This document shows positions 43,831 to 48,648 of a DNA stretch of 48,648 nucleotides, piece after piece. The position numbers and the translations under genes were made by a program. Each line of letters starts with the position of its first letter. Positions within the stretch are counted from its first letter, which is position 1. This stretch comes from an uncultured Gammaproteobacteria bacterium (GTDB lineage Bacteria; Pseudomonadota; Gammaproteobacteria; GCA-002705445; GCA-002716945), in NCBI GenBank assembly GCA_902605525.1, contig CACLCV010000005.1, positions 1 through 48,648 on the forward strand. The letters run 5' to 3'. The notes under the pieces were generated by a model. That model did not search any database. It was not told the DNA's origin and worked only from the letters and a program-made list of their open reading frames with translations.

Positions 43831-44862
43831 TTATGTTAAATATTCTAGTGTCTGCATTTCATTAAGTCTGCTATTACATCTTCGCCAAAGTTCTATAAGT
43901 TTGTCACCCGAATAAAGATTGTTACATGAGCAGTCGTTAAAAAAAAATTTAATCTTTATTTTATTTCTATAGCAAATATCTATAAACGATATAAACCTTC
44001 TGATAATATCGGCTGAATCATCATTACAGATTATAAAATCATTTATAAAGATCCATTCTATATTTTCTGACATCTCAATATATTCTTTATCCCCACCAGG
44101 TTCTTTGAAGAAGTCTAAAAAAGAAATCCATAAAAAGTCACACGATCTTGCTTTACAACTAAAATTTCTAGAATTGACACAATACTCTTTATTAAAAGTT
44201 AAATTTTCAAAATTATTTTTTAGAAACTTTACAATATCTTTATCGTTATAATTTTGATTTGCATTATCATTATTCATATTAACAATATTTCTCGATCTAT
44301 AATCTACCAAACCTTCTATTTGATATAGATTAATTGATTCTTGCATAATCTTCATCTCATTAATAAATACTTCTCTCTGTAGACCATTTTTATATAATTT
44401 TTCTGGATGTTCGTTAGAAGTTAAATACAGAGTAACATTTAATTTAATGAGTTGATTTAGTAGACTTCCAATAATCATCGCATCTGATATATCCTCAACT
44501 TGAAATTCATCAATTAATATAACCTTACATTTTTTACTTAAAGATCTAGCTACAATATTCAAAGGATTTTTTTTACCTGACAAGCCAGCTAATTCATCAT
44601 GTATAATCTGCATGAGCTCCATGTAATGGAATGATGCTTTTCTTTCTGTTAATAAATTAATGAAGGTTTTTGTAATTAAAGTTTTACCAGTTCCAACGTT
44701 TCCCCATATATAGAAACCTTTCTTAGAATCTTTATTCTCTAATTTATTTGCTAAATCTTTATCAGGTTGAATAGATTCAATCAATTTATGAATCAAATCT
44801 GATTGTGATGAATCTAATTCAATTCCTCTTTTTTTTAAACTCTTTTCAATATACTCAAACAT
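43831..44862 (-). CDS. zapE: Cell division ATPase ZapE (AFG1-like)
   Basis: AFG1/LACE1-type ATPase that joins the Z ring late in constriction and under stress. The 343-residue protein (E. coli 375) has Walker A YIWGNVGTGKT (51-61), Walker B ILIDEFQVEDI (115-125), sensor-1-like LTSNEHPEKLYKNGLQR (147-163) and a C-terminal domain diverged from the model proteins. Its start is 8 nt from the tRNA-Leu fragment, so any promoter must lie within or beyond that fragment. Confidence 0.9.
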   Translation of the reverse strand: MFEYIEKSLKKRGIELDSSQSDLIHKLIESIQPDKDLANKLENKDSKKGFYIWGNVGTGKTLITKTFINLLTERKASFHYMELMQIIHDELAGLSGKKNPLNIVARSLSKKCKVILIDEFQVEDISDAMIIGSLLNQLIKLNVTLYLTSNEHPEKLYKNGLQREVFINEMKIMQESINLYQIEGLVDYRSRNIVNMNNDNANQNYNDKDIVKFLKNNFENLTFNKEYCVNSRNFSCKARSCDFLWISFLDFFKEPGGDKEYIEMSENIEWIFINDFIICNDDSADIIRRFISFIDICYRNKIKIKFFFNDCSCNNLYSGDKLIELWRRCNSRLNEMQTLEYLT

Positions 44863-44870
44863 TTTCTAAA

Positions 44871-44920
44871 TACCACTGATCGGACTCGAACCGATACTTT
44901 CTTGCGAAAAAGGGATTTTG
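44871..44920 (-). pseudogene. 3' half of a tRNA-Leu, candidate attachment site
   Basis: On the minus strand the fragment begins at the anticodon loop (CAAAA), then the 3' anticodon strand TCCCT, a long variable arm typical of Leu (TTTTCGCAAGAAAG), T stem ATCGG / CCGAT with loop TTCGAGT, acceptor 3' strand CAGTGGT and discriminator A; no CCA is encoded. The 5' half is missing: neither ACCACTG nor the 5' strand AGGGA occurs upstream. The long arm and discriminator A indicate tRNA-Leu with anticodon CAA or TAA. A cut at the anticodon loop is a known crossover point of tyrosine integrases. Confidence 0.7.
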
Positions 44921-44998
44921 AGAACTTCGAGTTCACCAACCCCACAATTTAATAATTTTAGCATATTAGAGAAAGGAATAATGTTACAATTAAGCAGA

Positions 44999-45017
44999 TG
45001 TTATACTAGTGAGTATA
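44999..45017 (+). promoter_or_regulatory. Extended -10 promoter overlapped by an inverted repeat
   Basis: TG at 44999-45000, one base, then TATACT (45002-45007) forms an extended -10 element for the restriction gene starting at 45049. The same TATACT pairs with AGTATA (45012-45017) across AGTG, giving a 16-bp inverted repeat over the promoter. Such placement suits a repressor or control protein. No clear -35 is seen. Between the tRNA fragment and this site (44921-44998) I see nothing else. Confidence 0.4.
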
Positions 45018-45048
45018 GTAGAGCACTTTAACATCGATGAGATAAGAA

Positions 45049-48000
45049 TTGACAAGTTTTCAAAATACAGTTTCTATTATCAGAAAAAAGTCAAAAAGTG
45101 ACTCTGCTCTAGGTAGTGCATTTGAGCAACTATCAAAAGTATATCTTCAAAATGATGCGACGCAAATCCAACAATACTCTAAAGTATGGACTTATACTGA
45201 ATGGGCAAAAGACCGAGAAGGTTATTCAAATAAAGATATTGGGATTGACTTAGTTGCAAAATTACGTGATCAAAACAGTTATTGTGCAATTCAATGTAAA
45301 TGTTATCAATCAAATCATTCAATATCTAAAAGTGACTTAGATTCGTTTATCTCCGCAGCATCAACATCAGACTTTTCCAGGTTAATGTTAATCGACACAT
45401 CTACAGAATCTATAGGCAGAAATGCACAAGTTGTCTTAGATAATCTGAACAAAGAGTATATTCGTATACAGTCATCTGAACTTGAGGAAAGTCGTATTGA
45501 TTGGATGACTTACATTAATGATGGTGATGTAAAATTACAACCCAAAAAAATAATTAGAGATCATCAAATTAAAGCATTGAGAGCAGTTAAAGAGGGGTTA
45601 TCAAAGGAAGATCGTGGAAAAATGATAATGGCATGTGGTACTGGCAAGACATTTACAAGTTTGCGTATTGCTGAAGAAATCGCAGGTGCAGGGAAAACAG
45701 TTTTGTATATGGTTCCATCTCTTTCGCTTATGTCTCAAACAGTTCGGGAATGGAAAAATGATGCAGATAATGATTTTACTGCTTTTTCTGCTTGTTCAGA
45801 TAAAAAAGTTGGAAAGAGAAAATCAAATGATGATCATATTGAAGTAAATCTAAATGATTTAGCATTTCCTGCAACAACTGACCCGAGAAATTTATCAGAA
45901 CAAATCAAATCTTCAGACAAGTCAAAAATGACAGTTGTATTTTCAACTTATCATTCTATTCATGTAATCTCCGACTCACAACATAAATATGACCTTCCTG
46001 AATTTGATCTTATTATTTGTGATGAAGCACACCGAACAACAGGTGCTACCCTTATTGATGATGATGAATCTAATTTTGTCAAGATACATAATAATGAAAA
46101 TGTCAAAGGTAAAAAGCGTCTCTACATGACTGCTACCCCAAAAATATTTGGTGAAACTGCAAAAAAAAGAGCAGATGAAGGTGAAGTCACGCTTGCATCA
46201 ATGGATGATGAAGAAACGTTTGGCAAAACTCTTTTCTACCGCGGTTTTGGATGGGCAGTAGAGAATAATCTTTTAACGGATTATAAAGTAATTGTTCTAA
46301 CAATGAATGAAAAAATTGTCTCAGATCGCATTCAGCGTAGTTTTACAGATGGATCAGAATTAAAACTTGATGATGCAACAAAAATGATTGGGTGTTACAA
46401 GGCGCTCGCTAAAATTGGTATTAAAGATTCTAATTCTGAAGAAATTATTAAAGACAGTAAACCAATGAAGAAAGCATTAGCATTCTGTCAAAATATTAAA
46501 ATATCACAAATTTTTTCTTCAGAATTCTCAAACGTCGTTAATGATTATCTTTCTCATGAAAATTCTTCTAAGCAAGAAAATTTAAATTTAAAAGTAGAGG
46601 TATCCCATATCGATGGTACATTCAATTCCGAGCAAAGGAGTGAGAAACTAAATTGGTTGAAAGATGAAACTGAGGAAAATACATGTAGAGTTGTTTCTAA
46701 TGTAAAATGTCTTTCCGAGGGTGTAGATGTACCTAGTCTAGATGCAATTATGTTTTTACATCCACGAAAAAGTCAGATAGAAGTTGTTCAGTCTGTGGGC
46801 AGAGTCATGCGGAAGGCAAGAGATAAAAAATTAGGTTATGTAATTTTACCTGTTACAGTTGCACCTGGAGTTTCTGCAGAAAAAGCACTTAATGATAATG
46901 AAAATTATGAGGTTGTTTGGCAAATTCTTAATGCACTTCGCTCTCATGATGAACGATTTGATAGCACTATTAATAAGATTGGTTTAGGTGAAGATGTCTC
47001 AAATCGTATTGAGATAGTTGATGGTGTTTCAGCAGAAGAACTTGAGGCAACTACAGCAGTCGTCGAAGATATCAAATCAAAACCAAAGAGGGACGAAGAT
47101 GTAGGTGAAGATAATAATACAGACATTAATATAATAAATGATGATGAAACTGAAAATACAAATATTAATGAGAATGAGCAATTATCATTTACTATCACAG
47201 ATCTTTCATCAGCAATAAAAGCAAAAATAGTTGAAAAGTGTGGGACTAGAGACTATTGGGAAAAATGGGCAAATGATATTGCAAAGATAGCACAAAATCA
47301 TATCACTCGAATTAACTCTATCGTACTTAATTCTGGTACGCCAGAACGCGACTCTTTCATGAAATTCTTGAATGAAATTAGAGATGATCTTAATCCTGAA
47401 ATTACTGAAACAGATGCTATTGAGATGCTTGCACAACATATTATCACTAGACCTGTTTTTGATGCTTTGTTCAAGGATAACAAATTTACTTCTCAGAATG
47501 CTGTATCTAAAGCGATGGACGGCATATTGTCTCATATATACAAAAAAAATATTGATAGTGAATCAAAATCGCTTGAGAAATTTTATTTAAGCGTTAAAAG
47601 ACGTGCTGCAGATATTGAAAGTTCACATGCAAGACAATCTCTCGTTCTAGAACTCTATGATAGATTTTTCAGAAATGCGTTCCCTATTACCACATCGAAG
47701 TTAGGAATTGTCTATACACCCATTCAGGTTGTTGATTTTATAGTCCACTCTGTAAATGACATTTTGAGAACAGATTTTAATATTTCTCTTAAAGACAAAG
47801 ACGTTCATATAATTGATCCATTCACTGGAACCGGAACATTTATAACAAGGTTATTGCAAACTGGCATAATGTCAAAGAAAGATATTAAACGTAAATTCAA
47901 CAGTGAAATTCATGCTAATGAGATCGTTTTATTAGCATATTATATTGCAAGTATAAATATAGAGTCAGTCTACCAAGAAATTATTAATCCTGAAAAATAT

Positions 48001-48648
48001 ACACCGTTCAATGGAATTGTATTAACTGATTCGTTTCAACTACATGAACAAGAAAAAGATCTAGTTGCAGAAATATTGCCTGATAATTCAAACAGAAGGA
48101 CTAAACAAAAAGAAATAGAAAAGATTAAAGTAATAATTGCTAATCCGCCATATTCATCAGGTCAGAAGTCGCAGAATGATGATGCAGCAAATATAAAATA
48201 TTCACATCTCGACAAGTCAATTTTAAATTCATACAGTAAAGAGTCTAAAGCAACAAGGAAATCTTCGAATTATGATAGTTTTGTAAGGGCGTTTAAATGG
48301 GCATCTCATAGAATTGGTGATGAAGGTGTTATTGGATATGTAACTAATGGCAGTTGGTTAGAATCTAATTCCGGTGATGGCATGCGTAAGGTTTTAAAGG
48401 ATGAATTTACTAAAATTTATATAGTTAACTTAAGAGGAAATGCGAGGACACAAGGTGAATTGCGTAGAAAAGAGGGAGGAACATTATTTGGGTCCGGTAG
48501 TCGTGCTCCAATAGCAATTACAATACTTGTTAAAAATAAAAAGTCTAAAAAGAATGGAGAAATATTTTATTATGATATTGGAGACTATTTAAGTAGAGAT
48601 GAAAAACTTAGCAGTATTTCCAATTTTAAATCTATCACGGGAATTTTG
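45049..48648 (+). CDS. Type ISP-like single-chain restriction-modification enzyme (incomplete at window end)
   Basis: An uninterrupted frame of 1200 codons open at the right edge. Domains in order: an N-terminal Mrr-like endonuclease (about 20-145) with D67 and QCK (82-84); an SF2 helicase/translocase (about 165-620) with Walker A ACGTGKT (195-201), DEAH (325-328), TAT (361-363) and motif VI QSVGRVMR (581-588); a coupler rich in acidic residues near 670-720; and an N6-adenine methyltransferase (from about 880) with DPFTGTGTF (923-931) and NPPY (1032-1035). The start of target recognition follows. This order is that of LlaGI/LlaBIII-type enzymes (about 1,570 aa). TTG at 45049 is the first possible start; an in-frame TAA lies 6 nt upstream. 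Confidence 0.88.
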   Translation, partial: MTSFQNTVSIIRKKSKSDSALGSAFEQLSKVYLQNDATQIQQYSKVWTYTEWAKDREGYSNKDIGIDLVAKLRDQNSYCAIQCKCYQSNHSISKSDLDSFISAASTSDFSRLMLIDTSTESIGRNAQVVLDNLNKEYIRIQSSELEESRIDWMTYINDGDVKLQPKKIIRDHQIKALRAVKEGLSKEDRGKMIMACGTGKTFTSLRIAEEIAGAGKTVLYMVPSLSLMSQTVREWKNDADNDFTAFSACSDKKVGKRKSNDDHIEVNLNDLAFPATTDPRNLSEQIKSSDKSKMTVVFSTYHSIHVISDSQHKYDLPEFDLIICDEAHRTTGATLIDDDESNFVKIHNNENVKGKKRLYMTATPKIFGETAKKRADEGEVTLASMDDEETFGKTLFYRGFGWAVENNLLTDYKVIVLTMNEKIVSDRIQRSFTDGSELKLDDATKMIGCYKALAKIGIKDSNSEEIIKDSKPMKKALAFCQNIKISQIFSSEFSNVVNDYLSHENSSKQENLNLKVEVSHIDGTFNSEQRSEKLNWLKDETEENTCRVVSNVKCLSEGVDVPSLDAIMFLHPRKSQIEVVQSVGRVMRKARDKKLGYVILPVTVAPGVSAEKALNDNENYEVVWQILNALRSHDERFDSTINKIGLGEDVSNRIEIVDGVSAEELEATTAVVEDIKSKPKRDEDVGEDNNTDINIINDDETENTNINENEQLSFTITDLSSAIKAKIVEKCGTRDYWEKWANDIAKIAQNHITRINSIVLNSGTPERDSFMKFLNEIRDDLNPEITETDAIEMLAQHIITRPVFDALFKDNKFTSQNAVSKAMDGILSHIYKKNIDSESKSLEKFYLSVKRRAADIESSHARQSLVLELYDRFFRNAFPITTSKLGIVYTPIQVVDFIVHSVNDILRTDFNISLKDKDVHIIDPFTGTGTFITRLLQTGIMSKKDIKRKFNSEIHANEIVLLAYYIASINIESVYQEIINPEKYTPFNGIVLTDSFQLHEQEKDLVAEILPDNSNRRTKQKEIEKIKVIIANPPYSSGQKSQNDDAANIKYSHLDKSILNSYSKESKATRKSSNYDSFVRAFKWASHRIGDEGVIGYVTNGSWLESNSGDGMRKVLKDEFTKIYIVNLRGNARTQGELRRKEGGTLFGSGSRAPIAITILVKNKKSKKNGEIFYYDIGDYLSRDEKLSSISNFKSITGIL

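What the first reader, a model, noticed from the sequence alone, without database searches (positions are those of the whole stretch)
44871..48648. Left edge of a genomic island in tRNA-Leu carrying a restriction system
A tRNA-Leu fragment that begins exactly at the anticodon loop and keeps the complete 3' half lies directly before a large restriction-modification gene. The long collinear housekeeping runs stop at this point (zapE is the last). Integration at a tRNA leaves one intact copy and one such 3' fragment; for a minus-strand tRNA the intact copy should be at the far right. This predicts an intact tRNA-Leu sharing about 50 nt with the fragment, and an integrase beside it, right of the window.
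Basis: partly seen in the sequence, partly recalled or inferred. Interest (0 to 1): 0.7.

Follow-up and report, generated by a model that had tools for sequence, protein, structure and literature searches.

The report
Defence islet splitting a tRNA gene
A small mobile piece of DNA carrying an anti-virus restriction enzyme has cut a leucine tRNA gene in two in an ocean bacterium; in its relatives such pieces bring their own spare copy of that tRNA but no integrase, a new twist on a known way of jumping into essential genes.

Summary
The half tRNA is real: 44871-44922 (-) is 52 nt identical to the 3' part of tRNA-Leu(CAA), starting at the 7-nt anticodon loop. Twelve relatives have the intact tRNA at this place (five beside zapE, seven beside the next gene), so the window shows one edge of an insertion. 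The contig ends inside the cargo, a LlaBIII-like type ISP restriction-modification enzyme. In G002 (a single-cell genome), G017 and G018 the element splits the native tRNA at the anticodon loop: 3' half on one side, 5' half on the other, the loop at both junctions. There is no second copy of the 50 nt; instead the element carries a complete, different tRNA-Leu(CAA). No complete element (2.4-5.8 kb) encodes an integrase. Right ends keep lambda-like arm sites in fixed geometry, 62-64 bp from the core. Cargo is restriction-modification in G000, G017, G018 and G020. G015 holds both empty and occupied alleles. This works like 'tRNA-dependent lysogeny' and Pasteurellaceae ICEs, but as integrase-less defence islets. 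That the window's own element carries a replacement tRNA is inferred, because the contig ends first.

The parts
44871..44922 (-). 3' half of native tRNA-Leu(CAA), the left junction of the insertion
   Evidence: 52-nt identity with the intact gene of G008; not called as a tRNA by itself
44916..44922 (-). 7-nt anticodon loop (CTCAAAA; TTTTGAG on +), the recombination core, found at both junctions of complete elements in relatives
44923..45048 (.). left end of the element; its first 24 bases are identical to the element side of the G001 junction
45049..48648 (+). cargo: type ISP restriction-modification enzyme, first 1200 aa, cut by the contig end (LlaBIII has 1578 aa)
   Evidence: PF13156, PF04851, PF00271, PF22240, PF02384; LlaBIII E=2e-272
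43831..44862 (-). zapE, last chromosomal gene before the junction
   Evidence: PF03969 E=5.6e-65; beside the intact tRNA in five relatives

Best explanation
The window shows the left junction of a small site-specific mobile islet inserted inside tRNA-Leu(CAA). A lambda-type tyrosine recombinase, supplied in trans because the islets carry none, exchanged strands in the 7-bp anticodon loop between a short-core attP and the tRNA gene. The native tRNA is left as two dead halves, one at each end. Because the shared core is only about 7 bp, no tRNA is rebuilt; the islet instead carries its own complete tRNA-Leu(CAA) beside its right attP arm. The rest is cargo, mostly restriction-modification. Shown in relatives: the split native tRNA, the core at both junctions, the replacement tRNA, the arm-site geometry, empty sites, and no integrase. 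Inferred: that the window's own element has the same far end, that the recombinase comes from outside, and that the islet tRNA supplies the lost function.
For: Empty sites with intact tRNA-Leu(CAA) in 12 relatives. In G002, G017 and G018 neither flank gives a tRNA call, but the joined flanks do, as tRNA-Leu(CAA). Complete element-borne tRNA-Leu(CAA) 57-76% identical to the native gene. Arm triplet AATGTTTGTG (reversed, +33, +11), 62-64 bp from the core, at the right ends of G002, G015, G017 and G018 and nowhere else in 1.74 Mb scanned or in 20 shuffles. G001 has the same left end as the window (24 nt identical) and its other contig ends in the native 5' half. Empty and occupied alleles in the G015 assembly. 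PF00589 finds at most two full-length genes of about 300 aa per genome (presumably XerC and XerD) apart from satellites in G002 and G004; no serine recombinase.
Against: The far end of the window's element is not assembled. Its left end lacks the arm decamer seen at the left end of G018 and G020, though G002 and G017 lack it there too. G020 shows the classical arrangement. tRNA-Leu(CAA) may not be strictly essential where a UAA-anticodon tRNA can read UUG (general knowledge). No helper recombinase was found.
Confidence: 0.72

Rival explanations
1. Classical tRNA-targeted island: the element carries the tRNA 3' half, so the far end holds an intact tRNA sharing the 50 nt, with an integrase beside it.
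For: G020 has this arrangement of fragment and intact tRNA at the same locus, with a 2.7 kb restriction-modification cargo.
Against: No integrase in G020 or any other complete element. The closest complete relative (G002, same genus) and G017 and G018 have the split-and-replace form.
Confidence: 0.2
2. Dead remnant: the islets are decayed relics of larger integrase-bearing elements and no longer move; occupied and empty alleles were shuffled by homologous recombination.
For: No integrase anywhere at the site; small size; G024 has an islet-like tRNA without cargo.
Against: Arm geometry is kept even in the diverged G017 element; native halves are almost undamaged; near-identical tRNA and arm modules occur in different genera, G002 and G015; both alleles in G015. 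Homologous exchange of alleles within a population is not excluded.
Confidence: 0.25
3. Intron or transposon in the anticodon loop.
For: Group I introns are known in tRNA-Leu anticodon loops (general knowledge); the 7-bp repeat looks like a target-site duplication.
Against: Rfam finds only tRNAs in the five loci; the islets carry a second complete tRNA; the insertion point is always the same loop.
Confidence: 0.02
4. Assembly artefact: the zapE and restriction-gene sides were joined wrongly.
For: The genome is fragmented and the contig ends inside the cargo.
Against: G001 independently shows the same left junction, and the single-cell genome G002 has a complete islet at the same place in a 268,632 b contig.
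Confidence: 0.02

Closest known systems
tRNA-dependent lysogeny of actinobacteriophages (Fionnbharth, Gaia and others; PMC10865867)
   Same: [quoted passage not shown] Gaia uses tRNA-Leu-CAA.
   Different: Those are whole phages with their own integrase; here 2.4-5.8 kb islets with defence cargo and no integrase. Requirement for the tRNA is proven there, inferred here.
Pasteurellaceae ICEs in tRNA-Leu (ICEPmu1/ICEMh1 kind; PMC6028734)
   Same: [quoted passage not shown]
   Different: Large conjugative elements with XerD-family integrases and resistance genes.
Tycheposons and other tRNA-site islands of marine bacteria (PMC10872708)
   Same: Small-genome marine hosts, tRNA sites, variable cargo.
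   Different: Tycheposons carry a tyrosine recombinase; these islets do not. The original tycheposon paper was not in the library.
Type ISP restriction-modification enzymes LlaBIII and LlaGI
   Same: Same domain order over 1200 aa; LlaBIII E=2e-272 and LlaGI E=8e-271.
   Different: Cut by the contig end; target recognition region not seen.

Membership tests
tRNA-dependent integration (as in tRNA-dependent lysogeny) | Common core too short to rebuild the tRNA; native gene left broken | tested here: met
   G002, G017, G018: only the loop is shared and the joined flanks restore the tRNA. In the window only the left half is seen.
tRNA-dependent integration (as in tRNA-dependent lysogeny) | Element carries a complete tRNA of the same isotype | tested here: met
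   tRNA-Leu(CAA) in the G002, G015, G017 and G018 elements. Not testable for the window's own element.
tRNA-dependent integration (as in tRNA-dependent lysogeny) | Element encodes a tyrosine integrase | tested here: not met
   None in the complete islets. So it works like this system but is not a member in the strict sense.
tRNA-dependent integration (as in tRNA-dependent lysogeny) | Element tRNA is required for survival of the integrant | not testable with these tools
   Needs an experiment; copy number of tRNA-Leu(CAA) in the relatives was not checked genome-wide.
Lambda-type tyrosine-integrase attP | Core with 7-bp overlap and repeated arm-type sites in fixed geometry | tested here: met
   Arm triplet in four elements only. 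Binding itself not tested.
Classical tRNA island | Intact tRNA at the far end with the same 3' half, plus integrase | tested here: not met
   Only the tRNA half of this is met, and in G020 only; no integrase anywhere at the site.
Tycheposon | Element-encoded tyrosine recombinase | tested here: not met
Type ISP restriction-modification | Nuclease, helicase, coupler, methyltransferase and target recognition domain in one chain | tested here: inconclusive
   First four found in order; recognition domain lies beyond the contig end.

The most novel reading that the evidence does not exclude
A family of integrase-less defence islets, mobilised in trans, that split a tRNA gene and carry its replacement. 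By repeated insertion and loss of cargo they have displaced the chromosomal tRNA-Leu(CAA) in several lineages, and one attP type carries two tandem cores (TTTTGAA-TCA-TTTTGAG, 10 bp apart) that match the two host loop variants.
Probability: 0.45. Interest if true: 0.72.

Novelty: new variant of a known kind. Interest (0 to 1): 0.57.

Why it matters
It would extend tRNA-dependent integration from phages and ICEs to minimal defence cargo, suggest how small-genome ocean bacteria swap restriction systems without carrying integrases, and give a concrete route by which a conserved tRNA gene is replaced by a mobile-element copy. It also shows that the usual tests for islands (a second copy of the tRNA 3' end, an integrase nearby) miss such elements.

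Tried and rejected
Searching the window's genome for the second copy, the right flank, the 5' half and the rest of the enzyme: absent from the incomplete assembly. Viral contigs with the enzyme, junction, arm and attP patterns and the tRNA 3' half: nothing. The idea that the element side of the window junction is a decayed tRNA 5' half (weak resemblance to the D arm) was dropped, because the true native 5' half lies at the other end in relatives. Phage hits of the islet tRNA are generic tRNA-Leu matches and name no helper. The satellites with integrase in G002 and G004 sit near other tRNAs and lack the arm triplet. Introns: Rfam finds none. G+C of the cargo (0.32-0.34 against 0.26-0.32 before it) is only a weak signal. 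Cargo proteins of 270 aa (G017) and 386 aa (G020) have no PDB relative by sequence; that they are nucleases is a guess from their place beside methyltransferases.

Full report
Observation. The minus strand of 44871-44922 holds the 3' half of a tRNA-Leu(CAA) gene, starting exactly at the 7-nt anticodon loop CTCAAAA. Neither ARAGORN nor Rfam calls it, as expected for half a gene. The window is a complete contig of a fragmented genome (753 kb, 30 contigs, 73% complete), so everything right of 48648 is out of reach in this genome. The match is unique in the genome, and neither the right flank nor the 5' half was assembled. Of the 21 tRNA genes found, the leucine genes seen have anticodons TAG and GAG, none CAA.

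Empty sites. In relatives the same place, beside zapE or, where zapE is missing or elsewhere, beside the adenosine-kinase-like gene, holds an intact tRNA-Leu(CAA), followed in most by a 66-aa ORF and then a 147-aa ORF, queA and tgt. In G008 the intact gene is identical to the window fragment over 52 nt, and identity ends at the last base of the loop. So the window fragment is a junction, not a leftover duplicate.

Complete insertions. G002 (a single-cell genome, AG-390-N19), G017 and G018 carry complete islets of 4.7, 2.4 and 5.8 kb, junction to junction. Each lies inside the native tRNA: the 3' half is on the zapE or kinase side, the 5' half on the queA side, and the 7-nt loop TTTTGAG or TTTTGAA is at both junctions, with one substitution on the left in G002. 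Neither flank is recognised as a tRNA; the joined flanks are, as tRNA-Leu(CAA). Just inside the right end each islet has a complete tRNA-Leu(CAA) of another sequence, 57-70% identical to the native gene it splits. The far end of a fourth islet is seen in G015, whose assembly also has the empty allele with the same 50-bp right flank; so the islet is polymorphic in that population, or the assembly mixes two strains. G001 has the same left junction as the window, with the first 24 element bases identical, and its right contig ends within the native 5' half. G020 is the exception: a 3' fragment, 2.7 kb of cargo and an intact tRNA with the same 3' half, which is the classical arrangement; how it arose is unexplained.

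Attachment sites. At the right ends of G002, G015, G017 and G018 three copies of AATGTTTGTG (one reversed, then +33 and +11) lie 62-64 bp from the first core. This triplet occurs at no other locus in 1.74 Mb scanned and not in 20 shuffles of the window. Such a layout is that of arm-type sites of a lambda-like tyrosine integrase (general knowledge). G018, G020 and G015 share an attP type with two cores ten bases apart (TTTTGAA-TCA-TTTTGAG). The two hosts with loop TTTTGAA were joined at the first and the host with loop TTTTGAG at the second. This rests on three cases only.

No integrase. No ORF of the four complete islets resembles an integrase. Across 25 family genomes PF00589 finds at most two full-length genes of about 300 aa per genome, presumably XerC and XerD, plus one extra in G002 and one in G004, which belong to small satellites near tRNA-Glu and tRNA-Arg. 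No serine recombinase was found. The recombinase must therefore come from outside or have been lost; the kept attP geometry and the G015 polymorphism favour supply in trans. No helper was found.

Cargo. The window gene is a type ISP restriction-modification enzyme (Mrr-like nuclease, helicase, coupler, methyltransferase; LlaBIII E=2e-272), cut by the contig end and not found in the other family genomes. G017 has a C5 methyltransferase and a 270-aa protein. G020 has an N4/N6 methyltransferase and a 386-aa protein. G018 has two methyltransferase-like genes (the second judged from its sequence only) and an 894-aa ResIII helicase. G002 has an AlbA_2/Schlafen protein, a MutS_I-like protein, DUF6994 and others.

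tRNA displacement. The tRNA at this place is nearly invariant in genera g1, g3, g4 and g6 but very different among g2 genomes. The G024 gene, which stands there without cargo, is 95% identical to the islet tRNA of G017. In G009, G016 and G022 a different tRNA-Leu(CAA) lies there in the opposite orientation. Replacement of the native gene by islet tRNAs over time is the simplest reading, but the direction of transfer was not tested.

Relation to known systems. Insertion into a tRNA without rebuilding it, with a same-isotype tRNA on the element, is known as tRNA-dependent lysogeny in actinobacteriophages (PMC10865867), is described for Pasteurellaceae ICEs in tRNA-Leu (PMC6028734) and was noted in Sinorhizobium (PMC11476347). 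Marine tycheposons use tRNA sites but carry a recombinase (PMC10872708). What differs here is the minimal, integrase-less, defence-loaded form and its recurrence at one locus across a marine gammaproteobacterial family.

Limits. The far end of the window's own element was not seen. The number of tRNA-Leu(CAA) genes in the relatives was not checked genome-wide. Function of the replacement tRNA, and mobility, are inferred.

Noticed in passing
L092 (3950-4400), L094 (3640-3990), L095 (4000-4390): In G009, G016 and G022 a different tRNA-Leu(CAA) sits between the kinase gene and the 66-aa ORF in the opposite orientation to all other relatives.
   Followed up: partly
L131 8800-13500 and L132 7283-11600: Two small satellite-like elements with integrase, AlpA-like and terminase-small-subunit-like genes, near tRNA-Glu (G002) and tRNA-Arg(CCT) (G004); both share a 76-79 aa cysteine-rich ORF next to the tRNA.
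   Followed up: partly
L085 9527-12356: G020 has the left end of the split-and-replace type but a classical right end with an intact native-type tRNA.
   Followed up: partly
L090 10920-10936 and L096 (minus strand) 664-680: attP type with two tandem cores 10 bp apart (TTTTGAA-TCA-TTTTGAG); the core used agrees with the loop of the host tRNA in three of three cases.
   Followed up: partly
L081-L084: Several same-genus genomes (G003, G004, G005, G007) have no zapE at this place or elsewhere in the assembly; the tRNA then lies directly beside the kinase gene.
   Followed up: no
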